DNA of 64,000 nt, taken from Bemisia tabaci. Taxonomy: Eukaryota > Arthropoda > Insecta > Hemiptera > Aleyrodidae. The stretch spans positions 11,904,001 through 11,968,000 of the forward strand of contig NC_092801.1 of assembly GCF_918797505.1 (NCBI RefSeq). The letters run 5' to 3'. Below the pieces are notes generated by a model. It ran no database searches. It was given only the letters and a program-made list of their open reading frames with translations, and was not told where the DNA came from. The position numbers and the translations under genes are program-made. Shown here piece after piece: positions 2,032 to 63,000 of the stretch; the first letter of the stretch is position 1, and the number at the start of each line of letters is the position of its first letter.

Positions 2032-2427
2032 TTTAGGTCGGGCTTGTTTACATTGGGCCAACTTTTGAGCTTCATAATAACTTAAAACTGATGGACCAAT
2101 CAGAGAGCAGAGCCGGATTTATCTACTTGCCGCCCATGGGCCGCCTGTATTTTGCCGCCCCCTTCTCATTCGTTTTGAAACATCAATGAAACCATCAAGT
2201 GAACGTGCCGGAGGGAGAGGAGTGCATAAAACGCTGCAACATAAACGTGCATAACTCGTGTTTGACACATTTTTTGCGAAAGCCCTGTCAACATTACTGG
2301 CAAAAGTTTACGGAACTTTGCGCGAAAGTTAAGTCCCGTAAACCTATCTCTTTGTGGACAAGGCCTTCCATTTATAAACATTGAACTAAAAAATTAAGAA
2401 AGGACAAACATAAATGTGCTTTAATAA

Positions 2428-4496: not shown

Positions 4497-5075
4497 ATTT
4501 TAACTTCCACCACTGCTCTGCGCTGATCGCACTGTATTTGGCGCAATGCGGGAAGTATTCCTACAGTCTTGTAGGCGATATGCGTTTCACGCCGACCGCT
4601 GTTGACCGCACTGTGTCTGACGCAATGCGTAAAGTGTTCATGCAATCTTGTAGGCGCTAATATGTGTTACATGCCGACCGCCGCCGCGCCGAGGGCTTCT
4701 CCTTTTCATCTCAAGTCCTCGTCATCATTCCTCCCTGCGCTGAGCTCCAGGCCAAATTGCGTGTTTAGTCCCTCTCTAAACTCGACCAATTAAAGATGCT
4801 GTCTCTTGTATCAACGAAAAACAACAAAATTAGAAATTACTGTACTCTCAGGAAAGAGAGATTTTGTCCCCTTTTCTCATTGATAATTTTTTTTCTGAAT
4901 CCCATTTATTTTATACCTACATTTAAAAAAAAATTTAAAATTTGCCACCCCCTAAATTTGCCGCCATGGGCCGCGGCCCATGTAGCCACCCCCATTAATC
5001 CGGCCCTATCAGAGAGCGGCACAGAGATGACAATATTCTCCCGTATACATATAGTAGTATCTGTATACTACACAG

Positions 5076-15752: not shown

Positions 15753-16347
15753 TTCTAGCAAAGAGAAAACAAGAGCCCTAAGATCGGGCCGAGTGGCAAA
15801 CCCTACTTTCAAGAGTTGTCTCTGATTGGCTGATCCGTCTGGTGCCCACTTTCTGCCATTTGGAACCTTTACGGAAAAAAACACGGGGTTCATTTTCTGT
15901 CGAAAATATCTCGGAAACAAGAAAAAATTGCCTCGGACGTTTCAGAAATTCATTCTCCATCTGAAGAGATTCATGGGTAATACACGACACTTTTTTCTCA
16001 AACACACTGAACAGCTCGAACTGGAATTCTTTTTTTTAACGACACCAATTTATATATTTTAAGTTGAGAAAACAAAATTCCTGGTCGAGCTGGTCAGTAT
16101 GTTTGAGAAAAAAGTGTCATGTATCGTCCGTCAATCTCTTCAGAAAAATCTGGAGAATCAATATCTGAAATCTCTGAGTGTAAATTTTTCCTTGTTTTCG
16201 AGATATTTTCGACAGAAAATAAACCTCGTGTTATTTTCCATGAAAGCTCCAGAAAGTGGGCACCAGACGGATCAGCCAATCAGAGACGACTCGTAAATGG
16301 AGAGAGTGCCACTCGCCCCGCAATTCAACTCCGGGCTCTTGTTCCTC
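15753..16347. repeat. Large imperfect inverted repeat (I)
   Basis: Sequence from AAACAAGAGCCCTAAG (15768) through TGATTGGCTGATCCGTCTGG, GAAAATATCTCGGAAACAAG and GACACTTTTTTCTCAAACA is repeated inverted at 16100-16340, ending GGGCTCTTGTTCCTC. Each arm is about 250 bp with many mismatches and the spacer is ~80 bp. Its several 60-116-codon frames mirror each other across the palindrome and are not genes. Confidence 0.78.
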
Positions 16348-18590: not shown

Positions 18591-19869
18591 TAGAGTCCCT
18601 TTATAGAGAGAGTTAAGACAACGCGGCTCATGGATGTCACAAACGGGAATAAAGATTACACAAATTGGACGTTTTTGTAAGCTTTGATCAACCCATTCCC
18701 GAATTCCCATCTTCATTCCCTCTGTCATTCCACTTGTTCCTTGCCGTACCTCCAATGTCCCGGTCCATTCCAGTTTATAATCTTTGCAATTAGTGAAACC
18801 GTAATCTTTATTCCCGTTTGTGACACTGTGCAGGGCCGGATTAAGGGAGTGGCCACATGGGCCGCGGCCCATGGCAGCAAATCTATAGGGGGCGGCAAAT
18901 TTTGCAATTTTAATAAATGTATGTATAAAAAAAAAACGAATTTAGAAAAAAAATTACAAACGAGAGAAGGCGACAAAACCTCTCATTACCCGAGAGTATA
19001 CGTCTTTCAGAGATACAAGAGACAGCACATTTAATTATTCAAGTAAAGAGAGAAACCAAATAGTTAAAACACGCAATTTGGCCCGGAACGGCGTGACTCA
19101 GAGAGAAATGATGACAAGGACTTGAGATGAAAAGGAAAAGCCCTCGGCGCGGCAATCGGCATGTAACACATATTAGCGCCTACAAGACTGCACGAATACT
19201 TCACGCATTACATCAAACAGAGTGCGGTCATTGCGGTCAGCGTAAAACGGATAGCGCCTACAAGAATGCATGAATACTGCACGCACTGCGCCAAACACAG
19301 TGTGGTCAGCGTGAAACGCATAGCGCCTACAAGACTGCGTGAATGCTTCACGCATTGCGTCAAGCACAGTGCGTTCAGCAGCGGTTGGCGTGAAACTCAC
19401 AGCGCCTACAAGACTGTCGGAATACTTCACGCATTGCGCCAAACACGGTGCGGTCTGCGCGGCGCGGCGGCGGAAGTTAAAATCATTAATCCACATTTAT
19501 GTTTGTTCTCTCATAATTTTTTCGTTCATTTCTTATCAATGGAAGGCCTTGTCCACACAGAGATAGGTTTACGAAACTTAACTTTCGCACGAAATTCCGT
19601 GAACTTTTGCAAGTGGTGTTGACAGGGCTTTCGCAAAAAATGTGTCCAACACGAGTAAACGCGTCTTATGCACCCCTCCCCCCCCCCCCTGGCACGTTCA
19701 TTTGATGGTTTTAATTGATGTTTCAAAACGAATGAGAAGGGGGCAAAATACAGGCGGCCCATGGGCGGCAAGTAGGTAAATCCGGCCCTGACACTGTGAA
19801 GGCCTAAAATGCGGGAACCTATCAGAAATGGATTCACATTGTCTTTACTCTCAGTATAAAGGGACTCTA
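18591..19869. mobile_element. hAT-like element E1, carrying B3
   Basis: Ends TAGAGTCCCTTTATAGAGAG and CAGTATAAAGGGACTCTA, flanked by exact 8-bp duplications CGTCATGC (18583-18590 and 19870-19877). Without B3 it is about 310 bp, the same as E2. Both copies contain GGGAATAAAGATTACA and its inverted partner TGTAATCTTTATTCCCGTTT-like sequence. Confidence 0.92.
18831..19790 (+). mobile_element. hAT-like element B3, longest continuous B copy, nested in E1
   Basis: A 960-bp element with ends CAGGGCCGGATTAAGGG and GTAAATCCGGCCCTG, flanked by exact 8-bp duplications ACACTGTG (18823-18830 and 19791-19798). Tandem ~70-bp units beginning GCGCCTACAAG occupy about 19180-19480. GCGCGGCGCGGCGGCGGAAG ends the array. 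No transposase is present. Confidence 0.94.
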
Positions 19870-22586: not shown

Positions 22587-23160
22587 GCGATAGCGAAGAG
22601 AGCCTTATGTATATGAAAAAAAGTATTGAAAAAATGAGCTCAGAGTCGTCTGAGCGGAAAATTGTATTGAAAGAAGCCTGCGTTCTTTGTAAAATTGCCA
22701 CCAAAATCATTCGAAAGACTCTTAGAAATCGTTTGGATGATTGAAACTCGACCGATTTAATTTCAATTATATAAGAAGGGCATCATTCATTTTCATGTTA
22801 GGCTAGTGTTAGGCAAGACAGCCGTAAGTGCTATATCTTCTGCATGCATTGTGGTTGCGTTTTAGACACAGATCAAACATATTTTTAGGTTAGAAATCGA
22901 CGGAAGAGGGCAGCATTTTACTTGAAAGCACTGTTTTCATTCGCTCTCTGGAGGAATAATGTCACTTATTACTGTTTTGTTTGAAGCTACGTCATTTTTT
23001 GTGCACCTATGGGTTTCTCACATGTCTCGTCCACGGTTTCATGAAAACAAGATGAATTTCGCTGTTTTAGCTATTTCAGCGATTTCATCTAAAAGAGATT
23101 AGACGAATTTTGGAAACTCGATTTCGAAAATTTGACACTTACTGCTCTCTTCGCTGTCAC
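22587..23160. mobile_element. Inverted-repeat element C1
   Basis: Ends GCGATAGCGAAGAGAGC and GCTCTCTTCGCTGTCAC are inverted. The body includes GGCAAGACAGCCGTAAGTGC, TGGTTGCGTTTTAGACACA and TCTGGAGGAATAATGTCACT, shared with C2 (42502) and C3 (53077). About 574 bp, with no coding frame. Confidence 0.78.
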
Positions 23161-27118: not shown

Positions 27119-27730
27119 GTGTTTGATCTATGATTTGTGTTTGTCTAGTTTAGACTGAATACAGCCAACAGGAAGGCTTTGCGGAAGAGGATATCAAGGT
27201 GTGAGTTTCATCACTTCTTAGTAAATTGGACCAGATCGTTCTAAACTAGATCGGTCCGATAAAAGCCTCACCATCGATCTTCGTGATTTATGTTTGGTCC
27301 ATGATCAATTAAGTAATTTAAACAATTGCTGACCTAGTTTAAAAGAATACCCTCAGAATGAGGTTTAGTAAAGATGCAGCAGGCTTAAGTGAACCCGGGT
27401 TTTGGCGCCTTCACGAATACAGCCGAACTAGAGATCCAACTTCCCAGAATACTAATCTTGAATTCAGCTCTCGCGAAGTGTTTTTTCAAATCGCACTAAT
27501 CGCCTGTCGCTCCCAATTTGTTAATTCAAAATTTTTACTTTTTCAATCAATTTTGAGCTATTGAATTCATTTAAGAAAAAGTGAGGAAATGGCGAAACTA
27601 AGTATCTCCGTTTGCGACGTCGCAGACTTCATTTTATACTCGACTTTTCCTTTGGAAAACTAGTGAACATAATTTCTTGAAAATTTTCTTGATTATGCCT
27701 CTCTATGATAGCAGAATATTGTGTCTAAAG
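27119..27730. other. Non-coding stretch, no gene seen
   Basis: AT-rich. Small inverted segments (AACTAGATCGGTCCGAT region) and a 68-codon unsupported frame at 27358. Confidence 0.4.
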
Positions 27731-28305
27731 GATGTTGTCCCATTAAGGCGGGTATTTTGGCCCTAACTTTGGTCGAAAATTGAAACAGCTTAGAATAATG
27801 TCTTGTATGGTCAAATCGACTCTTAATCATCTACCCTGTGAGAACTTGTCCTTATTTGAGGTGTTTTTGAAAGGTTTTTGCCTGATTTACCAGCGCATAG
27901 TAGTGAAGTTTTGCAGTTTTCTCGAACAATTGCTCATTTTCGGTCCTAAATTAGATTGTTTATGTATGAGCACAAGCGACTGCCACTTTCTCCTTTAAAT
28001 ATGTTGTAATGGGTGTACGAAAGATTAACAAATTCGAATATGAAAGTGGTAGTCGCTTGTGCTCATACATAAACAATCTAATTTAGGACGGAAAATGAGC
28101 AATTATTCGAGAAAACTGCAAAACTTCACTACTTTGCGCTGGTAAATCAGGCAGAAACCTTTCAAAAACACCTCTAATAAGGACGAGTTCTCACAGGGTA
28201 GATGATTAAGAGTCGATTTGACCATATACATGACATAATTCTAAGCTGTTTCAATTTTCGACCAAAGTTAGGGCCAAAATACCCTCCTTAAAGGGACACA
28301 TCCCT
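27731..28305. repeat. Long near-perfect inverted repeat (N)
   Basis: Left arm from TGTTGTCCCATTAAGGCGGG to AGCACAAGCGACTGCCACTTTC (about 27733-27992) is matched on the opposite strand by GAAAGTGGTAGTCGCTTGTG to the AAAGGGACACATCC region (about 28042-28305). Arms are ~255 bp at roughly 95% identity by eye, with a ~50-bp spacer. No coding frame survives on both arms. It may be a foldback transposon or a local inverted duplication. Confidence 0.9.
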
Positions 28306-28989
28306 TCAAGCTACAAGATTGCCTTGGTTTTCTTTGACAAAATAAAATAGTAGTGGAAATTTTGAAGACACCATGATGAGGATACGTGGTATTGCGTTTT
28401 GGCCACCGAGAAGCTTTAACATAATTCAACCCTCATCTCTCTAAGCCTGATGAATTGACCCTCTCCGAAGTGCGACCCCTGCACAACGCAACGAACGCCG
28501 TGCGAAAGGAAGGGGTGCGATTTTGGGACCGCCATTTTGAATCGAGGCCCCTCGCCCTATTTAGTCGGTAAATAACGCTGAGCAATTTAAACGAGATTGA
28601 GTGAGTGAATGGGCGTCGCATTTACGGCGGGGAAGGGGGAGGGTTGCTCTTTTCCAATCGACAGCGCACGGTCCTTAATCTAATTATCTTCCGCCGATTA
28701 TGTGCGGCCGGCGACTTGTTGGTCTAAGTTAATAGGCGCGCCCGTTTTCGTCCCTGTTAAGGTCAAAAGGGCTACATTTCGCCAGAGGAAGCTATATACT
28801 AGGTATTTTTGGTTCATTTTAGAAACAACATATCGTGTCATTTTAGAAACAACATATCGTGATTTTCTTTACGAAGGATCTTATCAATCGCCATTTCGAG
28901 GTTGCTAAATAGAGAGTTTGGAGAGCACGGCGCATCAGTGCAGTTTTTGAAAAAATTGACATATTAATGATCAAGACATAAGAAGGGAA
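28306..28989. other. Non-coding stretch, no gene seen
   Basis: Contains a short direct duplication TTTTAGAAACAACATATCGTG (about 28818 and 28840). GC content is higher around 28430-28700. No exon recognised. Confidence 0.4.
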
Positions 28990-33156: not shown

Positions 33157-33918
33157 CAGAGCCGGATTAAGGGGGTGGCCACATGGGCCTAATTTTCTGA
33201 GCGTATAGTAACTTCTACTTTTGTCGTCTTTCAGTGATACAAGAGACAGCACCTTTAGTTAGTCGAGTTAAGAGAGAGACCAAATACGCAATTTGGCCTG
33301 GAACGGCGCGATTTAGGGAGAAATGACGACGAGGGCCTGAAATGAAAAGGAGAAGCCCTCGGCGCGGCAATCGGCATGTAACACATATTAGCGCCTACAA
33401 GACTGCACGAATACTTCTCGCATTGCGGCAAACACAGTGCGATCAGCGTGAAACGCATAGCGCCTACAAGACTGCGTGAATGCTTCACGCATTGCGTCAA
33501 ACACAGAGCGTTCAGCAGCGGTCGGCGTGAAACTCATAGCGCCTACAAGACTGTCGGAATACTTCACTCCAAACACGGTGCGGTCTGCGCGGCGCGGCGG
33601 CGGAAGTTAAAATCATTAATCCACATTTATGTTTGTTCTTTCATAATTTTTTCGTTCATTTCTTATGAATGGAAGGCCTTGTCCACACAGGGATAGGTTT
33701 ACGAGACTTAACTTTCGCGCAAAGTTCCGTGAACTTTTGCTAGTAGTGTTGACAGGGCTTTCCCAAAAAATGTCTTCAACACAAGTAAACGCGTCTCATG
33801 CACCCCTCCCCCGCTGGCACGTTCATTTGATGGTTTTTATTGATGTTTCAAAACGAATGAGAAGGGGGCGGCAAAATACAGGCGGCCCACGGGCGGCAAG
33901 TAGGTAAATCCGGCCCTG
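33157..33918 (+). mobile_element. hAT-like element B4 with internal deletion
   Basis: Ends CAGAGCCGGATTAAGGG and GTAAATCCGGCCCTG, flanked by exact 8-bp duplications CGACACTC (33149-33156, 33919-33926). Compared with B3 it lacks about 150-200 bp after CCACATGGGCC, and one tandem unit is shortened (near 33570). Confidence 0.93.
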
Positions 33919-33926
33919 CGACACTC

Positions 33927-40667: not shown

Positions 40668-40814
40668 ATGGGGCCTCTGTTGAGTATGACCATCTTCTCT
40701 TGCATTTGCATTTACTCTTGTGGGGCCATTTTTGGAAAAATCAGGTCTGTGGCTCGAAGTGCGTCTGCTAATTATGTGGATCTGTATGGACCGAATGAAC
40801 AAGTAGATCCCGTA
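40668..40814 (+). CDS. Exon 1: signal peptide and N-terminus
   Basis: Encodes 49 residues from ATG at 40668. The hydrophobic segment is followed by a basic stretch (KIRSVARSA), ending DLYGPNEQVDPV. The donor is GTA|GTAAGT, leaving phase 0. An upstream in-frame TTG is not needed as a start. The second ATG at 40686 would shorten the signal peptide only slightly. Confidence 0.72.
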
Positions 40815-43800
40815 GTAAGTATTGCTCTCATCGTGTTATTATTATTCTAAGTTTTTCAATACCCTCAATGTGTCTCATGTCTGTTATTAGTCACACACTG
40901 AAAAAAAAAATGTTTGAGATATTTTCTTGACGTAAGGTGATTCGACGGTTGCCATTTTTTGTGTCAGAGCGACGTGCGATACATGGCATCAATTCGTTCC
41001 ATAATTTCAGCTACATATTATTTATTGCGAATTTTGAGATCGCACTTCGCATTCGATACTGATGTCGAAACTGCACCCGAATGCAATATTTTTTCTCTAA
41101 AAAAAATCCCTGCCTTTATTACGTTGAATTTCTTTGTCAAATTTGGTACATGAATTCTTTGGTCTCATGAAAACAGGAGTGCGATCTCAAAATTCGAAAA
41201 AAATAACATGAAGCTGAAATTATGGAACGAATGGATGCGATTTACCGCACGTCGCTCTGACACAAAAAAATGGCAACCGTCGAATCACCTTATCGACAAA
41301 ATTTGTTTTTTTTTGTGTTTTTTTTTTAGTTAAATCCGTGCAAATTTACCCTTGAGTCAGTTTTTTTTTTTTTAAATCATTTTTTTAACTTAAACTTAAC
41401 AATAGCAAAACGACGCTTTTGTGACTAAAAAAACTGATGTTAAGTTGAAATCGCACGGATTTAACTTTGAAAAAAAATTGTCGAAAAGGAACGACGCTTT
41501 GAATCAAAATTATATCTCAAGAATTTTTTTTTTTTCAGTGCATGTCGTTTCTCTCACGAAGTCACGAATGAACGTAACAACATTTCAATGTTTCAAGATT
41601 TTCCCGCTAATTGCATTATTGCTCGGAGAATTTTGAGAATTTCTAATTGAAAATTTCACTAATATTTCCTCTGCTTTTATGCAAAAATCAGACAAATTCT
41701 CGACGAAAATTTTGCAGGTTTACTCTCGTTAAAAGTTGAATTGTTTGAGTGTATTTCGCAACCCCAGAATGGATGGCTAAGATGAACATCAACACATTTT
41801 GAATTGGGATCAACCCCCTTGTCAAGCAGAAAGAATAAAAATAAAAATAAAATCAACAAAAATTTACAAAAATTTTTTTAAAAAATCGAATTCCTGGTTT
41901 GTGACAGCAGATTCTTCCCCAGACATTTCAATGTTTTTAGTTCAGAATTGTATATTCACTTTCTTGTGTTTGTTTTCTTTAGTTTATTTCCTTTCGTATT
42001 CTATATTTTTTGCGGTGTCAAAATTCCTTGTTTAAGAATAACCTATCTTCAAAGTTAAACCGATGAATGTTACACAAGTTCTGTAACTATAGTTAAATTT
42101 ATACTGCTAAATTAGTGAGCCGTCATTAAGCTTTCCTTAATTACGATATAAACCATGTAAGGTCTTTTATTCTTTGTAATCAGAGGAATTTTACACAAGT
42201 TCCGTAGATATTATTCATTTTATACTGATAAATTAAAGAGGTGTCCGTAGGCTTCCCTTAATCATGATATAAACCATTATAGGGTCTTACCAGGAGAAGG
42301 ATCTATTTGAGTATACCTTGTTCGTTAAACATTGTACGCTGCTGATAAAATACTTCGTGCCGAAGCTTGAAAAATGGAAGTTTAATACCTTAAGGGTGAT
42401 TAACTAAAACTTGATGAAAATAGTTCCATTTTAATTATGAAGGTTACCCATCAATCTATCTCAACTTTTCCTGCTATCTTGAGATCATCCGTATACCTAC
42501 CGTGATATCAAAGAGAGCAGTAAGGGCAAAATGAAGTTCTGAGATAACGGGCTGAGAAGCTTCTGACCGGAAAATTTTATTAGAGGAAGCATCCGTTCTT
42601 TGTCAAATTGCCTTTAATCGTTCGGAATACTCCTATAGAAATCGTTTGAATGATTGAAAATCGACTGATTTTATATTTCAATCACATAAAAAAAGGTGTT
42701 TTTCATTTTCATGCTAGATTATTGTAAGGCAAGATAGCCGTAAGTGCTATCTTCTGCATGCTTGCGTGGTTGCGTTTCGGACACACAACAAACACATTCA
42801 AAAAAATAAAAAATCGCAGAAGGGGGCGGAACGTTACTTGAGAGCACTATTTTCATTGGCTCCCTGGAAGAATATTGTCACTTACTGCTGTCTTGCCTGA
42901 AACTGCGGCATCTTTTGCGCACTTACGGCTTTTTCATGTCTCGTTTTGATACAATTAAGATGAATTTTCCTGTTTTAGATATTTCAGTGATTTCATCCAA
43001 AAAGGATAGGACGAATTTTGAAAGAAACTTGATTTCGAAAAATTTGACACCTACTGCTTTTTTCGCTATCACAACTGACCAATTTTTTACGTTTTTTAGT
43101 GCGATTTCAGAACTTATACCGAACGTCGTGCTAACGCTGACGCAGCCTGTAAAAAAGATTGCCGAGATATCTCGCAGGTGACCCAGAAAGCTATAGAAGA
43201 CTATGAGCGGGTTTTCCCGGTGAAGCAATTATATGACAAGTGTCACGGTTTCGAAGGTAAATTAAATTGATTTTAAATAATTAATCTAGCTCTCTGGAAA
43301 TTTCGAGGAACACGAAAAAAATAAATTGCTGATTTAACGATTCAATTCTTAAAAAATATGTCCGAAATGTTTCGAATGTACATTTTACAATACTGCCGTG
43401 TTAAGGAAAAACGCAGCATGAACATCCGAGAGTTGCCACATTTTCCCTCTTCAAATGTTAATTGTTGAGACAAATAATGGATATTTCTACTTGAAATTTT
43501 TTGATCATTTAGACCATTGCGAAGAAAATTCTCTAGCAAATCTGGTGGCAAATTTTCACAAGTTTTCCTGAAAATTTGTATTTTAATAAATGAAATTTGG
43601 CAACGCACTAAGGTTCATATGGCGTTCTTCCTTGGCACGGCAGAGTAGTGGACATTTTTATATCGTAAAATCTTCATTGAAATATGTCTACCACTTTTTT
43701 AATTGCAAAATTGAAATCGGCAATTTCATTTTTTCCGTGAAAAATATTCATAGCTCCTTCGAAAAAAAAGATTCCTTGGTCGGACAAAAGTTGGTAACGT

Positions 43801-46358
43801 TTGATTTCTTTTCTTATAGTTAACTCGGTAAAACCAGCTTGGTCCCAGTTCCTGAATTAATGATGGGAAAAGCCGGCCAGGTTGGCCTAGTGATCAGCGC
43901 GTCTGACTGCAGGTCGAAAGGTCCCGGGTTCGAATCCCGGTGTTGGTGACAAATTTTCACGGAACTGACGAGTAGATCTGCAGGAACAGGTTCCACTCGG
44001 CCCTCATCCCTGAAAATTTGAAAAGCCTAGAGCATGGATGTCCCTATCGCCCTGTTGTCTAAGGACATTAAATCTCTGTCTGTACTTGGCTGCAGACCTT
44101 TGAGAGAAGGTTTAAGCCATTAAACATGCAACCCGGTTTTATTGTTGCTTTAATTTGTTCATTTGAGTTTGAAGAACACTTAAAACAAAACTCCCTATGA
44201 ATGCGTTTTGTGATGAACCCAGGTGGCGAGAGGGGGGGGGGGTCGCAAACCTAGCTCGTTTTTTCAGTTTCACCGTTGGAGGGTCTCCATTCAAAGGTAT
44301 GATTGAAAGCACTGTGTGGCAACTCGCGTGATTGCCGGAAATCTCTCCATTTGCATGAAGCAAAAAACAGCGCAAAAAAAGCGGTGAAAATAGGTTGCGA
44401 ATAAAATCTGAGCACGCATACTGCGCAGTGCGATCTTGTGTATGTTCTTCCACTGAAAACCAAAAATTGATCTCGCCTAAAAAAAACTAAACCAGCTTCC
44501 AAGCATTCGGTAGGAACGTGTCTCCAATAATATTTGATGGTGAAACTGCAGAGATGCGTCGCCCGGCTTGCAGCGTTGCAATTTCCTGTCATGCTTTATT
44601 TTTACGTGGGAAAGAGCTTGATGCAAAAACTGGCTTTTTTCGCCCCCCTCTGGAAGTTCTTCAGGCTTTGTCTATTGATTACTCATACTTGAGCGCTTCT
44701 TTTCCCAAATTTTCAGACCCCCAAACAATTTTGGGGGGGAGCTAGGGGGGGGGGGGGGGGGGGGGGGTGGAAGTCAAAACCTGTGAACCTCGATATCTCT
44801 TGAACGAAGAAAGATATCGAGGTCCGGTTTGGACGAAAAAATCGTCTAAAATTGCATACTTTAAGATTTTAAAGGTCGAAATCCCGATTTGACCCATCAT
44901 GGCCCCAATCAAACTGGCTCATTGTGCAGCTATGATTCACGAGAAAATTAAGGGTGCTCAAAATGAAAGTTTATATCCATCGAGGTCCTCCATGAACATA
45001 CATGTTATTACATGTTTTCAGTTCCGATTCTCTCAAGATGGGAGAATTGTTTTTCCTCCAAAAACTCTATTGTTTCGATACTTTGGGTAGGCAGCCTACC
45101 TTAGGTGGGTTCAAGTATTATGTATCGCACTTTTTCCGATTTTTCTACCCCTTCCCTCCCCCCTTGTGACGCAGTCTTAACGCAGCCCTTCACACCCCCA
45201 CCCTTTGAATTAAGTAATGCTGGCCTGACCTCACCCCCCTCCCCCCATCTTCAAAAAATAAAGAAACCGCTGAGAAAATAGCTTGAAAAAAATTTGGGGT
45301 TTTCTTGGAAATATTTCGCTGGAAAAATTCCGTTTTGTCGAGTTGGTCGCGCCCCGAGAAGATTCATTCGGGAAGTGCGGTATTTTCAATTTTTTGCAAG
45401 TTGGTCTTTTCTCAAATCCCCCCCCCTCCCCCCCCCCCCCGGCTTGGAATTGTCATGTAATGCTTGGCCTGAACCCTACGTAACGTATTGTAATGGTGGC
45501 TCAACCCCCCCCCCCCCCTTCCCCTGGATGCGTTAAGTAATACTTGAACGATCCCTACCTTTGTAGATACATCCCTTTTGCTTAATTCAATCCTACTCTC
45601 GTTTGCCTCCAGCGGGAAAATGCAAGAAGTTCTTCAAGATCAAACAGACTTACTGCATGTGCGAGGATAAGGAGAAGCGCCGGTACCGAGCGGCGCGATC
45701 CTGTCGGGTGGCCATCGCAACCGCGCGGAAGGCGATAAACAGTGCCATCTTCCTGAAAACGGCGGCGGCCAAGACGTTCGGCGGCGGCGGCGGCGGCGAC
45801 GACGGCTCTGAGTTCGACGGCGAGGTATCCGAAGACTACGGCGCTGAAGCGGGAGCCGCCCAAGAGCACGGCCACGCAGCGGATCCCACACAAGGTTATG
45901 GGCCCGGAGCGGTTCCCTCACAAGGTTATGGTCCCGGAGCGGGCGTCCCCAAGGGATACGGCCCCAAAACGGGCGCCGTGCAGGACCCTAACCACAGGCA
46001 ACGCGGCGCCCCCGGCCCCCCTTACGGATATGGATACGACGACGACGATGCAGCCTCCAGCTATTCGGATTCCTCCCAAGGGTCGCAGGGATCTCGCGGG
46101 TCGCAGAGATCTCGCAGGTCGCGTGGCTCTCGGTCCTCAAAGTCGTACGGCTCCGGAAGATCGTCGCGTTCCGGAAGATCTTCGAGTTCCGGGAGATCGT
46201 CGAGTTCCGGAAGATCGTCGAGTTCCGGAAGATCGTCGAGTTCCGGAAGATCGTCGAGTTCCGGAGATCGTCGAGTTCGGAGGATCGATGAGTTCCGGAG
46301 GATCGATGAGTTCCGGAGGATCGATGAGTTCCGGAGGATCGATGAGTTCCGGCAGTGA
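40668..46358 (+). CDS. Secreted cysteine-rich protein with Gly-Tyr-Pro and Ser/Arg repeats (3 exons)
   Basis: I do not recognise the family. Predicted exons are 40668-40814, 43100-43256 and 45613-46358. They join in phase 0 and then phase 1, giving 349 residues. Residues 1-23 form a signal peptide with a hydrophobic core (SMTIFSCICIYSCGAIF), so the product should enter the secretory pathway. Residues 50-132 hold eight cysteines spaced C-x15-C-x3-C-x26-C-x7-C-x10-C-x-C-x13-C, probably four disulfides, in a basic domain. A tail follows: a Gly run, an acidic patch, three GYGPGA-like repeats, DDDD, then Ser/Arg/Gly repeats such as SSSSGR. Donors GTAAGT and GTAAAT and acceptors TTTTTTAG and GCCTCCAG are good. 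The frame ends at 46358, but two repeat irregularities near 46265 and 46278 shift it away from a longer frame ending at 46464, so the true C-terminus is uncertain. An AATAAA at 46949 could be the poly(A) signal. Introns hold transposons. A role in saliva, cuticle or secretion is only a guess. Confidence 0.7.
40896..41540. mobile_element. Inverted-repeat element L4 in intron 1, containing a foldback
   Basis: Ends CACTGAAAAAAAAAATG and TTTTTTTTTTTTTCAGTG with CA on both flanks. Inside, arms of ~130 bp (about 40915-41045 and 41160-41302) share TGATTCGACGGTTGCCATTT, GTGTCAGAGCGACGTGCG, TTCGTTCCATAATTTCAGC and their complements. It lies wholly within the first intron of the cysteine-rich protein gene. 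Confidence 0.75.
41541..42501. other. Intron 1 sequence with an internal direct repeat
   Basis: TTACACAAGTTCTGTAACTA...TTTATACTG and TTACACAAGTTCCGTAGATA...TTTATACTG (about 42069 and 42190), each followed by CTTCCTTAAT or CTTCCCTTAATCA and ATATAAACCAT, form a ~120-bp tandem duplication. Otherwise AT-rich and without exons I can support. Confidence 0.55.
42502..43072. mobile_element. Inverted-repeat element C2, ending 27 bp before exon 2
   Basis: Ends GTGATATCAAAGAGAGCAGT and ACTGCTTTTTTCGCTATCAC are inverted. The body matches C1 (GGCAAGATAGCCGTAAGTGC, TGGTTGCGTTTCGGACACA, GATTTCATCCAAAAAGGA). The right end lies just upstream of the polypyrimidine tract and AG used by exon 2. Confidence 0.8.
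43100..43256 (+). CDS. Exon 2: first half of cysteine domain
   Basis: Follows CAATTTTTTACGTTTTTTAG. Encodes 52 residues beginning CDFRTYTERRANADAACKKD and ending YDKCHGFE plus one base of the next codon, then donor G|GTAAAT. It has four cysteines (C50, C66, C70, C97). Open only in this frame, and phase-compatible on both sides. Confidence 0.72.
43312..43740. mobile_element. Palindromic element CC2 in intron 2, carrying A10
   Basis: AAAATAAATTGCTGATTTAAC and AATGTTTCGAATGTACATTTTAC match the left part of CC1. The right part after A10 (GAAATATGTCTACCAC, AATCGGCAATTTCATTTTTTCCG) mirrors it. Located in the second intron of the cysteine-rich protein gene. Confidence 0.68.
43393..43643 (+). mobile_element. 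MITE family A copy (A10), nested in CC2
   Basis: Left end CTGCCGTGTTAAGGAAAAAC, right end GGCGTTCTTCCTTGGCACGG-CAG. Flanks AATA/AGTA. It lies in intron 2 of the cysteine-rich protein gene. Confidence 0.9.
43873..44110 (+). repeat. tRNA-derived SINE-like element
   Basis: A tRNA-like head GGCCTAGTGATCAGCGCGTC (A-box region) and GGTTCGAATCC (B-box, 43927-43937) is followed by ~160 bp of unrelated body. The acceptor arms do not pair well and a body follows directly, so this is probably a SINE inside intron 2, not a tRNA gene. The 3' boundary is uncertain. Confidence 0.65.
44111..45612. other. Intron 2 sequence rich in poly(G)/poly(C)
   Basis: A ~23-base poly(G) run at about 44745-44767 and poly(C)-rich runs near 45418-45440 and 45506-45518. 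Frames on both strands at 44139-44592 overlap each other and lack domains. No further exon is supported. Confidence 0.5.
45613..46358 (+). CDS. Exon 3: second half of cysteine domain and repeat tail
   Basis: Follows TTTGCCTCCAG. The first two bases complete the alanine codon split with exon 2, then GKCKKFFKIKQTYCMCEDKE. It supplies four cysteines (C105, C116, C118, C132). GC-rich codons here contrast with the AT-rich flanks, and the frame is open for 746 bases. The repeat tail starts about 45780. The stop at 46358 follows four RIDEF-type units created by the frame change. Confidence 0.7.
46145..46350 (+). repeat. 18-bp coding minisatellite in exon 3
   Basis: Five to six units of AGTTCCGGAAGATCGTCG are followed by about four units of AGTTCCGGAGGATCGATG. 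One base is missing near 46265 (GGAGATCG for GGAAGATCG) and one near 46278 (TTCGGAGG for TTCCGGAGG). Variation in unit number and frame is expected in such arrays. Confidence 0.9.
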
Positions 46359-46443
46359 TGGCAGGTCACCGCTGCAGATAACCGCGGCCGCTGCAAGGGA
46401 GAATGAGATGTTGCAAAAGCAGCGAGAGAAACAATTGTGGAAA

Positions 46444-47288
46444 GGCCAGCGTAAGCGTAGCTAGGGCAATGGCGTAACGGACTTCCGCTGCCCCCCCCCC
46501 CCCGCCAAAATGTTTCTAGCCCCCCCCCCCCCATATGTCGATAAAATTCCAAAATTATCCCCCCTCCCGCCCCTCTCCCACTCTCGCCCCTTCCCATTTT
46601 TTGGCCCGATACTTCTCAAATCACGGACGTGGACTTGGAATGCCTCACCCCTCACCGTCCCGGATCCCGTACCCGATTAAATGGGGCCTCTAAAGGATCA
46701 AGGATCTAAAGGGTGACGGGGGCCCAGCCCAGGCCCAAGGATCTACAGGGGGGCTCAGGCCCAAGAATCAAAGGGTCCCCAAGGGCCTTGGGGGCCCTTT
46801 AGATTCTTGGACCTCCCAAAGCCTGCAATACGAAAAATGGGCAAAAAAAGAGAAAATTATTTAGTAATCTCTGAGTGGACATTGGAAGGCAGGGGCCCTC
46901 AGCAAACAAAAAGTTAAGAACAGTCCAAAAGAAGTATGAAGAGCTAACAATAAAAATCAGATGAAGAAGCCTCATCTCGGTAAGTAAAGGCCCAAAGTTA
47001 GAAACCAAAGCTAAGCATCAAGGGGGAGAGGGAGAGAGAGGGGGAGAGAGAGAGAGAGAAAAAAAAAAATTCTGGCGGCCGAGGGCCCCCTAGGCGTCTG
47101 GACCCCCCTGCATAGCAGGGTCTGCGGGGGCGCCCGTTACGCCGCTCAGGGGGATCCTGGGGGGCCTGCCCCCCCCAGAAAAACAGGATCCTCCATTCCT
47201 CACCCCCCCTCCCCCCGCTCTCCTCACCACGAGAGGAGGTCCCATGCCCCCCCCCCCCCAGAGAAATTTCCTAGCTACGCCCCTGGCC
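46444..47288. mobile_element. GC-rich inverted-repeat element at the 3' end of exon 3
   Basis: GGCCAGCGTAAGCGTAGCTAGG (left, from 46444; 22 bases with two small differences) is mirrored by CCTAGCTACGCCCCTGGCC at 47270-47288. The interior is very rich in poly(C), GGGGCCC palindromes and GAGA repeats. If real, its left end overlaps the last codons and TAG stop (46462-46464) of the longer reading frame of the cysteine-rich protein gene. Confidence 0.5.
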
Positions 47289-50429: not shown

Positions 50430-52324
50430 TTCCATTGGACGATAAGTGAACGATAAGTTGACGTAGGTTTCGTCCATTTGAAGTTCACCTTCTTTTCTTC
50501 AAACGGTAAGTTGGAATTTTTAAGCCAACGTGCGTTAAAAATCAGCACAAAGCTGGAAATCTCAATACAGAGGGAAAAAGCTCATATGAGCACAATTTTC
50601 CCTCAAAGAGATACGCGGTTTGGTGCAACACTAGTAACGACCATTCACGAAGGCAACTGCAGACGCGTTTCGGGTCTAATTGGACCCATCCTCAGTGCAC
50701 CTCGTTTTTAACGCACGCTGGCTAAAAAATCCCAACCCAATGTCTTACAGCCAATGCGTCTACCGCAATCAGTTTGTGTTCTTCTCTTCAGTTTAGACCA
50801 TAAAACCTTCATAAAACCAGAACCAGAGTGCAGAAATCTTTTCGAAAAACATTACGATGGCTGAAGTCAAAAAATGTGTCTCACCATCGTACCGTTTCAC
50901 TGATGTTTTTATTTTTTTAAAGACTAATCAAAAATATTTTCTGGAAAATTCCATTAAGGTTTCAGAATGAAAGAGGAAATTCATGGCTTTTAAAGGTAAA
51001 CTGTTGGGTAGACAACAGAGAAGAGTGCGTCAGCCAGCAATGACAGCACTCTAAGGTTTAGCGCACTGAAAAGCGCTCCAGAAAAAACACTTCAGTCTCT
51101 GATTTTTTCAAAATCCATTTTCAAACTGTAACCTTGTTCCTTTTTTTACCTTTTTTTCAATTTTTAAATGTCACTCAACGGGTTGATGAATTGGACTCCT
51201 TGATTATTTCGACAAATTTCGTGTCAAAAACAATATGCGCATTGACTTAATGCAAATTTTCAAAAATAACGGAGTGCAACTGCCTGCATCCGAAGTTTTT
51301 GTGGGCTTAGAAGGAGCATAAAAAAAATTTTCGATTAATAGAATTTAGGAGCTGGTTCATTTTTTCCCTTTTTTTTCAACATATTGTCCTTTTGTGCTTT
51401 TCATCGGCACTTTTTTACACACTTGCTTGAGGCCTGAGGCCTATTCAGGGATGCCACTTAACTTTTCTGACGTCATGTTTCCATTGCGATTTAAAACACA
51501 TGAAACAGATGCGAACAGATGTGAACAGATGCGAGGGCACGCACAGGTGCATTGACGCAAAAATCATGATTTTTCGGTGCTAGGAAATTTGTCCTAAAAA
51601 GTCTTTTCCTACCCCAAATTTTCCTACTACTTTTTTCCTACTCGGTTTTTGTCCCATTACAGTAAGTCCTACGAGTGAGATGTCCTACTTGCTTTTTTCG
51701 GTATTTGTCCTAATTTTAACAGATACTTTAATATGAGTAGAGCAGACTGCAGTGAGAAGAGTTCGCGACCTAACCTCGCACACTTAGGTTGGTTTCTAGG
51801 AGACACTCGACACCCCCACTATATTCATCCATATTTTCTATATATACCTAAAGTTAAATGTGAGTTACGACAAATACCCCTCCTAGAAAATAAAACAGTA
51901 GGATATAATACTCGTAGAACGTATTGTAATGGAACAAAAAACGAGTAGGAAAGAAGTATTAGGTACACTTGTTTGTAGTAGGAACATTTTTAGGAACAAT
52001 GACTTGCCACCGATTTCTCATGAATTCTCATATTTGTGATAAACTTAGGGAAACAAGTACAAGTTAGTTCGTATACTACTTACGACATATTACGCCTACA
52101 ATTTTAGACCTGCGACAAAATGCATATAAAATTTGACCTAAAGTTAAAATGCCTACAAGAATAGTTGTAGCATCAAAAAATTTTGAGGATCTTACATTCA
52201 ACTAAAAATTTATGCGAAAAAGTTGTGGGGTTCATTCACCTGAATCTACTAGGTGAAATTATAATCGACACGTCGAAGGTGAGTGAAACTTATGCCTCTC
52301 TGAACGGAGCTTGCATACTACTTG
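50430..52324. other. Non-coding stretch, no gene seen
   Basis: About 1.9 kb of AT-rich sequence. It includes repeated ACAGATG(C/T)GAACAGATG near 51510 and several TCCTAC motifs at 51600-51700. The 71-codon frame at 51733 and 77-codon frame at 50478 have no recognisable domain. Confidence 0.4.
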
Positions 52325-53072
52325 CAGGGCCGGATTAAGGGGGCAGCCACATGGGCCGCGGCCCATGGCGGCAAATCAAGGGGGCGGAAAATTTTGCAAT
52401 TTTTTTAAATGTAGGTATAAAAAAAATCGGATTTAGAAAAAAAAATTACAAACGAGAAAAGGCTACAAAATCCTTCATTTCCTGAGAGTATAGTAATTTC
52501 TAATTTTGTCGTCTTACAGTGATACAAGAGACAGCATCTTTAATTATAGTCGAGTTAAGAGAGAAAGCAAACACACAATTTGGCCTGGAACGGCGCGACT
52601 TAGGGAAAAATGTTGACGAGGACTTGAGCTGAAAAGGAGAAGCCCTCGGCGCGGCAATCGGCATGTAACACATATTAGCGCCTACACGACTGCACGAATA
52701 CTTCACGCATTACATCAAACATAGTGCGGTCATTGTGGTCAGCGTGAAACGGATAGCGCCTACAAGAATGCATGAACTCTTCACGCATTGCGCCAAACAC
52801 AGTGCGGTCAGCGTGAAACGCACAGCGCCTACAAGACTGCGTGAATACTTCACGCATTGCGCCAAACACGGTGCGGTCGGCGCGGCGGCGGAAGTTAAAA
52901 TCATTAAACCAAATTTTGTGTTTGTTCTTTCATAATTTTTTCGTTCATTTCTTATGAATGGATGGCCTTGTCCATTAGAGATAGGTTTACGAAACTTGAC
53001 CTTCGCGGAAAGTTCCGTGACCTTTTGCTAGTAGTGTTAACAGGGCTTTCCCAAAAAATGTTTTCAACACAA
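52325..53072 (+). mobile_element. hAT-like element B5, right end truncated
   Basis: Left end CAGGGCCGGATTAAGGGGGC and the tandem GCGCCTACAAG units (52677-52870) match B3. The sequence breaks off after AAAATGTTTTCAACAC, where element C3 begins, so the right terminus and target duplication are lost. Confidence 0.9.
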
Positions 53073-53076
53073 ATGA

Positions 53077-53477
53077 CGTAGTTTCAGGCAAAACAGCAGT
53101 AAGTGACATTATTCCTCCAGAGAGACAACAAAACAGCTTTTAAGTAAAATCCCGTCCTTTTTCTGCCAATTTCTGACCTGAAAATTGTGTGTCCGAAACG
53201 CAACCAAGAAAGCATGTAGAATTGTAGAACATGGCACTCACGGCTGTCTTTCCTAACACTGGCCTGGCACGAAAATGAAATCCTTTTTATGAAATTGAAA
53301 TAAAATCGGACGATTCTAATTCAACCAAACGGTATCTAAGAGTCTTACGGATTATCAAAGGCAATTTGACATAGAACGGAGGCTTCTTTAAAAAAGTTTT
53401 CCGATCGAACGCTACTAAGCCCGCGCGTTTTTCTCAGAACTTCATAGTTGCACTTACTGCGCTCGATCTTCGCTATC
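53077..53477. mobile_element. Element C3, partial
   Basis: Reverse-oriented relative to C1. GTAGTTTCAGGCAAAACAGC, AGTGACATTATTCCTCCAGAG, GTCCGAAACGCAACCAAG and GGCTGTCTTTCCTAACACTGG match. The right end TTACTGCGCTCGATCTTCGC retains the terminal repeat. It abuts the truncated B5. Confidence 0.72.
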
Positions 53478-57000: not shown

Positions 57001-60000
57001 CATCCAAAAACAACAATATCAACAAAACTGATCAAAACCTAACCAAAGAAATTGCAATAAAATAAAATTAGATTGATTTGTGGATAATTTCTCAATCTTT
57101 TTTCATTTTGGTTCGATGAAAATAACAATTCACTCTTGATAAGTCACAATTTGGTTATTTTTTAATTAGTCTTGTTCAAATTTGAGCCACCGCCATCTTG
57201 GTGCACTCATTTGTGACTCCATGAGCGAGATCCAACCAGAATTGGATTTTTTTTTGGTCACTTCCAGTTGTCTCTGAGCCCAGCCAAACCCGACCAGAAT
57301 TGAGATGTCGTAACTCTGGGTATAAAGGGACTCAAGTTCCATTTAGCATAAATAATACGTCTATCTGAGAATCTCCATGCAGGAAGTTGCAGGGAGGGTT
57401 CGATGGACTTGGACTTCAACTTAACACGGCCAATTAAACGCCCTCCCAAACTTACGAAGCCGACCGCCATGAGCCAGCAATCGCCGATCAACCTCCACAC
57501 TGCCGACGCTGTCCCGAAAGGATACCCTCCGTTAAGATTCCATGGACACTTCCATTTGTCGCCCGAAAATTCGCCTATGATAAAAAACGACCATGGGACA
57601 GGTGCGGATCCCATTTATTCTTGCAAGTTGGCTATGCTGACACCTATAAAACTATCGATGCACTGTTAAAAATCCCGGCGCGAAATTCACGCTTACTCAG
57701 TTGCTATTTTGACCACCTGTTACTCTGAGTGTATGGATTCGGCGCGAATTTCCCGCTCTGGCCGGAGAGAAAATTTGACAGGCTGATGTAAAACGGAGCT
57801 GCCGCAGCGTGGACCTGAACTCGAGTCGCGGCGGTGAGAGACGAGTGCGTTACCACTATGTCGGATGACACTGAATTCACGCTACTTGAGGGAGCTAAAC
57901 TAATTCATCCGTTATTGGTGATATTCACGCTCTGATCTATTCACTCAGAGTGCGGCGAGAATTTCGTTCTGGATTTTTTTTTTTTTTTTTTTTTCACGCC
58001 GTCTATTCACTCAGAGTAAATCATTGATTTTTAACAATGTGACTGTTGTCTGCGAGGAATCGATGACTAAGAAACAATTTGACAACATTTTACAATTAGA
58101 AACTATAATATCTGGCTCATTCGTAAAAACACATATGTTTGTGAGGAAACTTATGGCACATACTTTGTTTTTAAACTGAGCCAGAAATTATAGTTCTCAA
58201 TTGCAAAATGTAGTCCAATTCCGCTTATCTAAAATCTAACTGGACGTATTTCTGTCCAACGGAACTAAGGGCCAATTTGAGTTCTTTTGAGGAATTTAGA
58301 ATGCCGGATAGCGCGCTCTGTCAAACGAAACTAAGCGCCATGCGCCATGGAAAAGCATTGCGAGTATAGGACGGAATGAACCTGACGCGACGCCCGATTC
58401 CGCCGCGAATCCAAGCCCCCCCCCCCCCCCTCTATCTTCCTCCCCCTGGCGCTTAGTTCCGTTTGACAGAAATACGTCCAACTATTTTATGGGACGAAGG
58501 AATACCCCAGAAAGTACGATAGAGTCTTAAGGCACCTATAAAACTATCGATGACTAGGGGAAAATTCGACGACATTTTGCAATTAGGAACTACAATCTCT
58601 GACTCATTTGTAAAAACACATACGTTTGTAGAGAAACTAATGGTAGTAATGGTAAACATACTTCGTTTTTTAATTGAGCCAGAAGTTATAGTTCTCAATT
58701 GCAAAATGTAGTCCGATTCCGCTTTTATAAAAATTAACGATTTTATGGGACGAAGGAAAAACCCATAGAGTGCAAGAGAGTCTTAATGTACCTATAAAAC
58801 TATAAATGACTGTCTGCGGGGAATCGATAGGAATCGATATGAACTACGAACACGCAGAATGCGTGCTGAAGAGTGGATTCCAGACTTTTTTGATGTGCTC
58901 ATCGTGATTTTCTAGTAAATGGAGATGTTGCATGTGTGAGGAATTTGCGATTTGACTGTTGATGCTTATGTAAAAGTTCGCGAGAAACACGATGGTGCCA
59001 CTGGTTTTCTCTGAAATCAACTCCCAGGCATTAAAAAAGCTCTCAAGTTGAGGCCAAAATGGAGGAGATATCCCACGCTATCCTGAGAGTCCACCTCTAC
59101 ATCAATACGAACGCTCCGTGCAAAGATAGGGAGCAAATACATTAGCAGTGATGCCGTGTTTTCAGTTTTGGAGTCCCCAAATAAAGTGGCAGCCCTTTCA
59201 ATGTATTTGGTCCCTATCTTGCATGAGAGTTTTTTTTATGTAGAGGGGGACTCTCAGGATAGCGTAGGATATCCCCCTCCATTTTGGCCTCAACTTGAGA
59301 GCTTTTTTTGAGCTTGAGAGTTGATTTCAGAGAAAACCAGTGGCACCATCGTGTTTCTCGCGAGCTTTTACATAAGAATCAACAGTCAAATCGCAAATTC
59401 CTCACACATGCAACATCTCCATCCACCCGTATGAAGTTCATTCAGTTGGCTATATTTCTTGCGAACAAGAGACCCATTGGCAACCCTGTTTGATCATTTT
59501 CAGTCCAGATCGGTGAGTCTCGGAGAGGAGAAAACCGGGCAACTATGACGGGAGGCCCGCTCAACGGAACGGCGTATCGTTTCGCTCAGTGTCATTTTCA
59601 CTGGGGCAATCAGAGTGATGTTGGCAGTGAACATACTGTCGATGGCCATCCGTTAGTATCCTGCAATCCTCTCACTTTATTTTTCAAACCATCATAAGCT
59701 GATTATCTAAATTGATGGACAAAGCGAAAGACAACAAAGACAAAGGGATGGACGTGGGATTAAGCGATCCTACTTGAATCAGTGAGTTCGAAAACACACC
59801 AACTCAGAAAAAAAATGTTCAGGGAACACAATGCGCAGCGGGCGAAGAAGTTAGTTCAAGAAAAGCCTTTTTGGTGCCAAAGGACAAGTACTTAGAGACT
59901 TTGTAAAGAACCAAGTTGAAATCAATACACCATGTTTGATGACAGAGAATTAAGTGCATTAAAAATTTCAGAGTTTATGTGTTCCCGTTCTCACCGACTT

Positions 60001-63000
60001 TCAGATACTGATTTTTCATAGTCTGCCCAGAAAAATCTATATTTTTCGACCTGAATAACGCTTGAAAATTTATATAACTTGTTGGTACAAGGTATACTGA
60101 ACCGAAAAAAGAAAACCGCAAAATCGGATGGTCACCCGTTTCCCTTGAAATGGCCAAAAATTGGTATTTCCAATGAAATACTAAGATTTTTCCCTTTTCC
60201 CGTCGCTTTTTCAAGCACTTCCGATTGCAATTTCAAAACCTTTTGCGTGCAGATGCTTCTATCCATGAGTGTTACTAAACCGTAAAAAAGTGAAAATCGA
60301 AAAAAACCCGAGTTGGTGTGTTTTCGAAGTCACTAATTCATTTGTGGAAGTGGGCGGTTGCAATGGACAAAGGAAGTGATTGATTGATTCGTCAGGGTGT
60401 CTGACGTGGTCGAACTGGCATGCGATACATCGCATCGATTTTATAAAAAATCTCGGCAGATTTTGAATTTTTAGCAAAAAAAGAACAACAGGCCCTGCGC
60501 AAGAGCCTACAGAATCAGCCTACACCAAAAAATTTGCGAAATTCTGAGAAATGAAAGCAAAAAATATGTTAGGGAAAAAACTTCGCATTTGATACAGTTA
60601 TCGCTTTCTGTATCGAATGCAAGGTTTTTTTCCAAACATATTTTTTGCTTTCATTTCTCTGAATTTCGCAAATTTTTTGGTTTGGCTCGTGCCTATTGTC
60701 CTTTTTTTTGGCTAAAATTTCAAAATCTGCCGAGACTTTTGATATAAACGATGTGATTCATCTCATGCCAGTGTGACCACAATTGGAACCGAATCACCTA
60801 AAATAACGGTAACTCACGAAAGACCCTATAGTTAGTCCATATTTCCAAAATCTGAATAGAGCGCGCTGGCGCTCGTGTAGGTACTAACTCCGATGGATAG
60901 CCTCAGAAATAATTAAAAAGTGTTAAATTTAATTTAACAAATTAGGACGGTAGGAAAAACTGGGACAAAGAATACAAATTTAGGGAGTCAGAGAGCTTAA
61001 AGTAATGACTGAAATTTTTTCTACATACGTTGATTCGAAATTTCAATAAGAAGTCAACGAGAAGGTATTTTTAACCGACGTTGTTTATTACAACTATATT
61101 TATTCATTAAAAATTATGAAAATAACTACATCATGAGACTTCTAACCCCATACTAATTTTCCAAAAATATGTATGCAACTATTACTTCACTTTAAAAATG
61201 AAAATTTGGAATGAAAGACGAATTCAAGGAGCATGCAGTAGCTCCAAATTTTCGGGAGGGGGGAGGGGGGAGGGCTCCGCCAAGAAGGAATTTTGTGGCC
61301 TCTCCCGATAAAAGAGGGTAGAAGGATTCAAGAGAGACCATAAAGGGATCTGCGAGATTTCTTAAGAAAGTTGGAGATGGGGCCCCAAAAATCTGCCAGA
61401 AGGGGCCTCTGCGAGGCCAATGTGCCCAAATTTTAAGGAACCATTAATCATCCTCATTAATCATCCCCATTAATCAGTCCGCTTCATTAGGAAACAGGAG
61501 TGACATTTTTTTCAAACATTTGCGGAATTTTTCCAGGGGGTTTTATACTGCCGTGCTGAGGAAGAACGCCGTATGAACCTTCAGGCGTTGCCAAATTTCC
61601 TTTGACGAAACGCAAATTTCCTGGTAAACTTATGAATATTTCCCTCCCAATTTTTGAGATAATTTTGTTCGCAATTTCACCTAAAGATTCTGAAAATTTA
61701 AAGGAAAAATATTGATAACTTTCCTCGAAAATAAACTTTTTATCGAAGGAAATTTGGCAACTCTCGAATGTTCATACGGCGTTCTTCCTTAGCACGGCAG
61801 TGTACTCCTATATAATACAATTTTTCAAGAATCTCATTGGTTTCAGGACATTCTGTCAACGATTTTTTATTCGCGCACCTTTTTTGTCCAGTGGTTTACG
61901 CCCACACGTGAAATAAGCAACGGTGACTTGGTCCAAGCGTTATATTTTAGTCGGTATGTAAAATTATATTGACAATATGGAAATGAGAAATTGAGAGAAA
62001 AGGAGGTGTTGATATGGTTGCTCATTTTCTAGATGAAATGTTATTACTTTCTCCTTTTGAATCGTCTTTAAAAATTGTCATTGGTGAATATTTGGTTTTA
62101 TTTCTATCCTTAAAATATGAATGTACAATATACCTCATATATGTATAGGTACTTTTTCATTTTTTTTATTTTTTCTTTACGAAATTATTACTTCATTTTG
62201 AAAACATTTATATTTTTAAAACGTGACAAATATTTGTAAAACCTTTTCTAAGCGACATTAATCTCAATGAGCCGCAGTTGTGCCGACAGAAACTGCAAAA
62301 ATGAATAAAAGAGGGGAAAAAACCAAGAAGCACGCAATCTTTAGTTTTAACCCATTTGTACATCAATCTTTTAGAGTCAAATACGTCAAATTTTGAGCGT
62401 TTCGTTGCGCGTACAGCGTACACCTCGCTGCAGCACAATAAAAGCACAAAATGTAAAAGAAAAATTAAAGTGCTTTGAAAATCAATAAATTCGACACGGA
62501 ACCACCAATATTTAAAAAAACACACATTATATTATTATTCTCCTTTGATAAATTGATACATATTTTTCTTACCATCAATTCAAATGAGAATAATCGATGC
62601 AGAGTGTGCTAACATTTCAAAATCATGAGTTAAAAAAACGTTAAATATTAAAGCCTACCAGAGCGGAGCGTCGTGTTGATAGCGCGAGGCGCGAGAGGCT
62701 CACTGGCGCCTACAAACCTAAGTGAATACTTCACGCATTGCAAAATGCTTGAAGTATCCAATCAGGTTTGTAGGCGCCAATGCGCGTTTCGCGCTGACGT
62801 ATCATACGAAATTGAACGTATTAAAAATGACAAGCATCCTTTAAAAGTACAGATCTTTCCTCGCAAAATAAATCAAGATACCTGTCGTAAACAGGAAAAA
62901 TCTAAGAGCCTTTAGCTAAGGCAAATCAAGAGGTTTATCCGGTCCAGGTATAACAAGGTGGGAATTTCTTGAAAGATAATTAAGTCCTGTTACACCAAAG

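What the first reader, a model, noticed from the sequence alone, without database searches (positions are those of the whole stretch)
40668..46464. Unrecognised secreted eight-cysteine protein with a repeat tail
Three exons join in phase across good splice sites to give a signal peptide, a compact basic eight-cysteine domain and a Gly-Tyr-Pro plus Ser/Arg/Gly repeat tail. I cannot place it in a known family. A disulfide-rich head on a repetitive secreted tail could suit a salivary, cuticular, silk- or cement-like product. That last step is inference.
Basis: partly seen in the sequence, partly recalled or inferred. Interest (0 to 1): 0.75.

Follow-up and report, generated by a model that had tools for sequence, protein, structure and literature searches.

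The report
Whitefly-only secreted eight-cysteine protein family
A whitefly gene for a probably secreted, cysteine-rich protein belongs to a small gene family so far seen only in the crop pest Bemisia tabaci, with no known fold or function.

Summary
The exons are real. GT/AG joins 40814/43100 and 43256/45613 are in frame and encode a hydrophobic leader, a basic eight-cysteine domain and a GYGP plus Ser/Arg/Gly tail. Correction: the joined frame stops at 46356-46358; the stop at 46464 is in another frame, because the 18-bp array changes frame. The genome is Bemisia tabaci: database protein P0001 lies on a contig of exactly the window contig's length. Eight related loci were found on contigs 9 and 10. 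In eight members aligned, all eight cysteines plus one Gly, Arg and Asn are invariant. The nearest, LOC109040210, aligns through both junctions (34%, E 3e-18). A profile built without the window ranks exons 2 and 3 first among 1715 window frames. Pfam, PDB-sequence and fold searches gave no significant match; the five database relatives are all B. tabaci. Function is inferred: most likely a salivary-type secreted product (0.42); expression was not testable. The cysteine order resembles the CS-alpha-beta framework with two extra cysteines, a lead that no profile or fold match supports.

The parts
40668..40814 (+). Exon 1: start codon, hydrophobic leader (about residues 1-23) and spacer ending YVDLYGPNEQVDPV; intron 1 follows in phase 0
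   Evidence: exon-1 end aligns with LOC109040210 (YIEMYGPDATASL) and with the C10:11.47 Mb gene (YIHLYAPDAKADD)
40815..43099 (+). Intron 1, GTAAGT...TTTTTTAG; holds a diverged repeat at about 42513-43072
   Evidence: repeat by self-comparison of the window
43100..43256 (+). Exon 2: first half of the domain, cysteines 1-4 (CxxxC helix part to CHGFE)
   Evidence: profile positions 1-51, E 1.4e-6 with a profile lacking the window
43257..45612 (+). Intron 2, phase 1, GTAAAT...TTTGCCTCCAG; holds a tRNA-like repeat
45613..46358 (+). Exon 3 in the joined frame: second half of the domain (GxC, CxC, CR; cysteines 5-8), GYGP repeats, Ser/Arg/Gly tail, stop TGA 46356-46358
   Evidence: profile positions 54-98, E 8e-6
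45870..45942 (+). 30-bp repeat coding for GYGP units
   Evidence: translation
46152..46352 (+). 18-bp tandem array (11.3 copies) coding for RSSSSG-type units; the reading frame changes inside it
46359..46464 (+).

Best explanation
Shown: a three-exon Bemisia tabaci gene for a protein with a hydrophobic leader, a basic domain with a fixed eight-cysteine framework and a low-complexity tail; it is a divergent member of a family of at least nine loci on two contigs. Inferred: the protein is secreted, the cysteines form four disulfides that hold a compact helix-helix-hairpin-helix head, and the family grew by duplication and fast sequence change around that scaffold while spacers and tails changed freely. 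Most likely use (inferred): a secreted gland product, salivary first, in which the head binds a partner outside the insect cell and the charged flexible tail gives adhesion or avidity, in watery saliva or in the sheath. The confidence is for this use; the gene and its family membership stand at about 0.97.
For: Gene and family. Leader: hydropathy and hydrophobic leaders in database models of relatives (P0001; P0004, P0005). Fold: model of P0001 with pLDDT blocks of 72-85 over residues 61-150. Restriction to B. tabaci among database hits (2 and 4 hits, five different proteins), duplication and 21-35% identity between members with invariant cysteines fit secreted proteins facing a changing partner. 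Precedent by passages only: 171 salivary proteins, 34 of them B. tabaci-specific (PMC13297706); an Aleyrodidae-only salivary sheath protein (PMC13143284).
Against: No expression, proteome or tissue evidence. No member is named salivary in the database hits, and the three LOC numbers occur in the main text of no held paper (supplements not searchable). A review passage says that salivary effectors evolve slowly between B. tabaci species (PMC13297706), whereas the database and own-genome copies of two members differ by roughly 4-12% per exon stretch. The window copy may be impaired in its tail (frame change).
Confidence: 0.42

Rival explanations
1. Structural extracellular protein: cuticle, egg coat, egg pedicel or cement, in which the disulfide head cross-links and the GYGP and Ser/Arg/Gly tail forms a flexible matrix.
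For: Gly-Tyr-Pro and Ser/Gly repeats; two of the other members have Ser-rich basic tails of a similar kind.
Against: No cuticle or chitin-binding Pfam family was matched. Tails are not conserved across the family: one is Pro/Trp-rich and one member carries a Glu/Ala/Gln-rich stretch in front of the domain instead, so a repeat matrix is not the shared function.
Confidence: 0.25
2. Immune or symbiont-facing protein: a basic, enlarged cysteine-stabilised peptide with antimicrobial or bacteriocyte function.
For: Basic domain (pI 9.5) and the order C..CxxxC..GxC..CxC, invariant in 8 of 8 members, which is the cysteine order of CS-alpha-beta defensins (recalled). Cysteine-rich secreted orphans of aphid bacteriocytes are a precedent (recalled, not looked up).
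Against: No defensin-type Pfam match at E up to 10 for the window protein and its domain; loop between the third cysteine and GxC much longer than in defensins; no CS-alpha-beta chain in the fold lists, which is inconclusive.
Confidence: 0.18
3. The window copy is a decaying pseudogene of a real family: exons intact, tail frame lost.
For: The array changes frame before the stop at 46464; a search of the protein database with the spliced sequence found no entry at E 0.001, so no annotated copy of this gene was met.
Against: Leader, both splice pairs, all eight cysteines and the invariant Gly, Arg and Asn are intact; the change lies in a simple repeat, where assembly slips and length variation are common; a stop there still leaves leader and domain whole.
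Confidence: 0.15
4. Chance: unrelated open frames that happen to join.
For: Exon 3 length alone is reached by 11 of 500 Markov sequences.
Against: Both halves match adjacent parts of a profile that did not include them; one alignment to LOC109040210 runs through both junctions; 73.9 bits in the leave-one-out test against at most 10.7 in 1000 shuffles.
Confidence: 0.02

Closest known systems
LOC109040210, 'uncharacterized protein', Bemisia tabaci (P0005)
   Same: Hydrophobic leader, exon-1 end, eight-cysteine domain (34% identity over window residues 34-149, E 3e-18); its copy in this genome has the same intron positions and intron-2 phase; Ser/Gly-rich basic tail
   Different: A stretch of about 60 residues rich in charged and aromatic residues between domain and Ser-rich part, no GYGP units; tail rich in Lys as well as Arg
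LOC109037712 (P0004) and LOC109031702 (P0002), 'uncharacterized protein', Bemisia tabaci
   Same: The same invariant cysteines, Gly, Arg and Asn; P0004 has a leader exon ending just before the first cysteine
   Different: 21-25% identity to the window domain; P0004 carries a Glu/Ala/Gln-rich stretch before the domain; neither has the Ser/Arg/Gly repeats
CS-alpha-beta proteins (defensins and relatives; recalled)
   Same: Order C..CxxxC..GxC..CxC; in the P0001 model CxxxC lies in a helix and CxC in a strand
   Different: Two extra cysteines, an added helix in a longer loop and a long C-terminal helix; no Pfam or fold match
BtRDP, Aleyrodidae-only salivary sheath protein of B. tabaci (PMC13143284, passages)
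   Same: Secreted by prediction and without relatives outside whiteflies in the searches reported

Membership tests
Bemisia eight-cysteine family (LOC109040210 group) | Eight cysteines in the order C..CxxxC..C..GxC..CxC..CR with invariant Gly, Arg and Asn | tested here: met
   8 of 8 aligned members, window included
Bemisia eight-cysteine family (LOC109040210 group) | Profile similarity above chance | tested here: met
   73.9 bits against a profile of the other seven, best of 1000 shuffles 10.7; window-free profile hits exons 2 and 3 first of 1715 frames
Bemisia eight-cysteine family (LOC109040210 group) | Intron 1 directly before the first cysteine codon | tested here: met
   AG directly before the first Cys codon in the window and in L012, L038, L023, L015, L013/L006 and L007; not inspected for L010/L011; the leader exon of L007 is a candidate only
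Bemisia eight-cysteine family (LOC109040210 group) | Intron 2 after CxGF-x (three-exon subgroup) | tested here: met
   window, L012 and L038; phase 1 read directly in the window and L012, donor side only in L038; four other members have the domain in one exon, and P0002/L010 is split elsewhere
CS-alpha-beta superfamily | Cysteine order C..CxxxC..GxC..CxC | tested here: met
   the definition is recalled
CS-alpha-beta superfamily | Sequence-profile match to a CS-alpha-beta family | tested here: not met
   no such Pfam family at E up to 10 for the window protein and domain
CS-alpha-beta superfamily | Fold | tested here: inconclusive
CS-alpha-beta superfamily | Disulfides CxxxC to CxC | not testable with these tools
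   no coordinates or mass spectrometry
Insect odorant-binding proteins | Six-cysteine spacing with x3 and x8 and long gaps (recalled) | tested here: not met
   spacings here 15/3/26/7/10/1/13; no OBP Pfam match
aECM cysteine-cradle domain (PF23626) | Score above the curated cut-off | tested here: not met
   13.7 and 11.4 bits for P0002/L010 only, cut-off 27
B. tabaci salivary proteins | Expression in salivary glands or peptides in saliva | not testable with these tools
   no reads or proteome held; supplements of papers not readable here

The most novel reading that the evidence does not exclude
The family is a whitefly-born secreted scaffold: a CS-alpha-beta-type core enlarged by two helices and a fourth disulfide, duplicated mainly on one chromosome and fused to interchangeable low-complexity arms, serving as a set of saliva proteins not yet described as a family.
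Probability: 0.13. Interest if true: 0.65.

Novelty: new variant of a known kind. Interest (0 to 1): 0.45.

Why it matters
Bemisia tabaci is a major crop pest, and a review asks for better assemblies and annotation so that duplicated multigene families of possible effectors can be recognised (PMC8283192, passage). A defined cysteine framework turns scattered 'uncharacterized' models into one family that can be listed, checked for tissue expression and solved as a structure. If salivary, it would add a multigene set to a list made up largely of single proteins in the passages seen; if structural or immune, it would still be a lineage-restricted secreted family with no fold match found.

Full report
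WHAT IS THERE. The window is 64 kb of contig C9 (42,783,249 bases) of a 610-Mb assembly in 151 contigs. A database entry named 'uncharacterized protein [Bemisia tabaci]' (P0001) comes from a contig of exactly 42,783,249 bases, and its leader and domain exons are found on this contig, so the genome is the whitefly B. tabaci.

THE GENE. Exon 1 (40668-40814), exon 2 (43100-43256) and exon 3 (from 45613) join in frame over GT/AG introns. A donor three bases earlier at 40812 would also keep the frame. The joined frame gives 349 residues: a hydrophobic leader (hydropathy only), a short spacer, a basic domain with eight cysteines (C-x15-C-x3-C-x26-C-x7-C-x10-C-x-C-x13-C), three GYGP units and a Ser/Arg/Gly tail, with stop TGA 46356-46358. 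The 18-bp array at 46152-46352 changes frame within itself. I cannot tell whether this is real, allelic or an assembly slip, and I put nothing back. TATA-like words lie at 40465 and 40506 and polyadenylation-like words at 46676 and 46949; such matches prove nothing.

MORE THAN CHANCE. Exon 3's length alone is not convincing: 11 of 500 Markov sequences of the same make-up had as long an open frame. Homology settles it. A search of the own genome with the spliced leader and domain found, besides the three window exons, seven other places at E 10 or better; the strongest had 36% identity at E 3.9e-5, the weaker ones E 0.029-4.5, and their status rests on the family alignment. A search with a second member gave no new credible locus; one with P0005 added a complete gene on C10. 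A profile of five relatives that left out the window was run on all 1715 stop-to-stop frames of 25 residues or more in the window: the best two were exon 2 (profile 1-51, E 1.4e-6) and exon 3 (54-98, E 8e-6), the third had E 0.5; the joined domain scored 55.2 bits against at most 10.5 in 2000 shuffles. These relatives had themselves been found with the window, or with an alignment holding it, so the test is not fully independent. In a leave-one-out test each of eight members scored 63.2-96.3 bits against a profile of the other seven, the best of 1000 shuffles being 9.0-14.5.

THE FAMILY. I count nine loci in this genome: C9 at 8.92, 9.01, 11.28-11.30, 11.94-11.95 (window), 27.346, 27.357 and 36.93 Mb, and C10 at 11.47 and 16.24 Mb. 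Those at 8.92 and 9.01 Mb gave the same matched peptide. This is a lower bound, since the P0002 search did not complete. Eight members were aligned (window, P0005, L038, P0004, P0001, L007, L013, P0002; L011 left out as the near-copy of the P0002 locus): eight cysteines, one Gly (GxC), one Arg (CR) and one Asn are invariant in 8 of 8. Two database searches with family alignments returned five different proteins, all from B. tabaci and all unnamed or uncharacterized: P0001 and P0003 (two models of one locus), P0002 = LOC109031702, P0004 = LOC109037712, P0005 = LOC109040210. That database is searched by shared words, so relatives in other insects are not excluded.

INTRONS AND TAILS. The relative nearest to the window gene, LOC109040210, aligns at 34% identity over window residues 34-149 (E 3e-18), through both junctions, including the end of exon 1 (YVDLYGPNEQVDPV against YIEMYGPDATASL). 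Its copy in this genome has the leader exon at C9:11,282,408, intron 1 of about 15 kb ending directly before the first cysteine codon, and intron 2 in phase 1 as in the window (the donor of its intron 1 was not printed). The C10:11.47 Mb gene shows the same three exons, with leader-exon end YIHLYAPDAKADD before GTGAGT. Four other members have the domain in one exon, with a leader exon ending before the first cysteine: P0001 (annotated; donor GTGAGT, intron 5,024 bases), P0004/L015, L013 and, as a candidate, L007. P0002 is split at another place. Outside the domain the members vary: GYGP and RSSSSG repeats in the window gene, Ser/Lys/Arg/Gly in P0005, SSSRSSSSLSSSSSRR in L038, Pro-rich in L007, a Glu/Ala/Gln-rich stretch before the domain in P0004.

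FUNCTION. Not shown. Secretion is likely from the leader and the disulfide-type domain. Lineage restriction, duplication and divergence around fixed cysteines fit secreted proteins that face a changing partner. In B. tabaci a documented set of that sort is saliva: a review passage gives 171 salivary proteins, 34 of them B. tabaci-specific (PMC13297706, passages), and BtRDP is described as an Aleyrodidae-specific salivary sheath protein (PMC13143284, passages). [quoted passage not shown] tabaci species, whereas database and own-genome copies of P0004 and P0005 differ by about 4-12% per exon stretch; no genome-wide yardstick was available. I rank salivary first (0.42), structural second (0.25), immune or symbiont-facing third (0.18). 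None of the three LOC numbers occurs in the main text of the held papers; supplements could not be searched. Papers seen: PMC13297706, PMC13143284, PMC8283192, PMC5472608 and PMC6517521 by passages; PMC10583550 by abstract and outline; others as search listings only.

VERDICT. Its tissue and target are open.

Noticed in passing
window 46152-46464: The 18-bp Ser-coding array changes reading frame before the stop at 46464; could be real, allelic or an assembly slip.
   Followed up: partly
window about 43870-43950, and 1882-1902: tRNA-like B-box sequence in intron 2, with a second, diverged match at 1882; looks like a tRNA-derived SINE, no intact tRNA gene was found.
   Followed up: partly
window 27730-28306, 15785-16320, 58919-59422, 60406-60780: Stretches that match their own reverse complement at 78-91% over 375-583 bases: long palindromic or foldback elements.
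   Followed up: no
window 2107-2428, 4521-5008, 7578-8461, 18825-19790, 33189-33919, 52320-53072: Interspersed repeat family (about 78-92% alike), several copies of which carry a 69-bp tandem array.
   Followed up: no
window 42513-43072: Diverged repeat in intron 1 ending about 30 bases before exon 2, 74-78% alike to 22649-23160 and 53073-53464.
   Followed up: no
L010 and L011 (C9:8.92 and 9.01 Mb): Near-identical copies of the LOC109031702 domain exon about 86 kb apart: recent duplication or assembly duplicate.
   Followed up: no
L015 (C10:16.23 Mb) and L014 (C9:27.35 Mb): Family members whose low-complexity stretch sits before the domain, in the leader exon, instead of behind it.
   Followed up: partly
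P0003, same locus as P0001: A second database model of 316 residues joins the P0001 domain to a different upstream sequence that does not begin with a hydrophobic leader; possibly a gene-prediction error.
   Followed up: no
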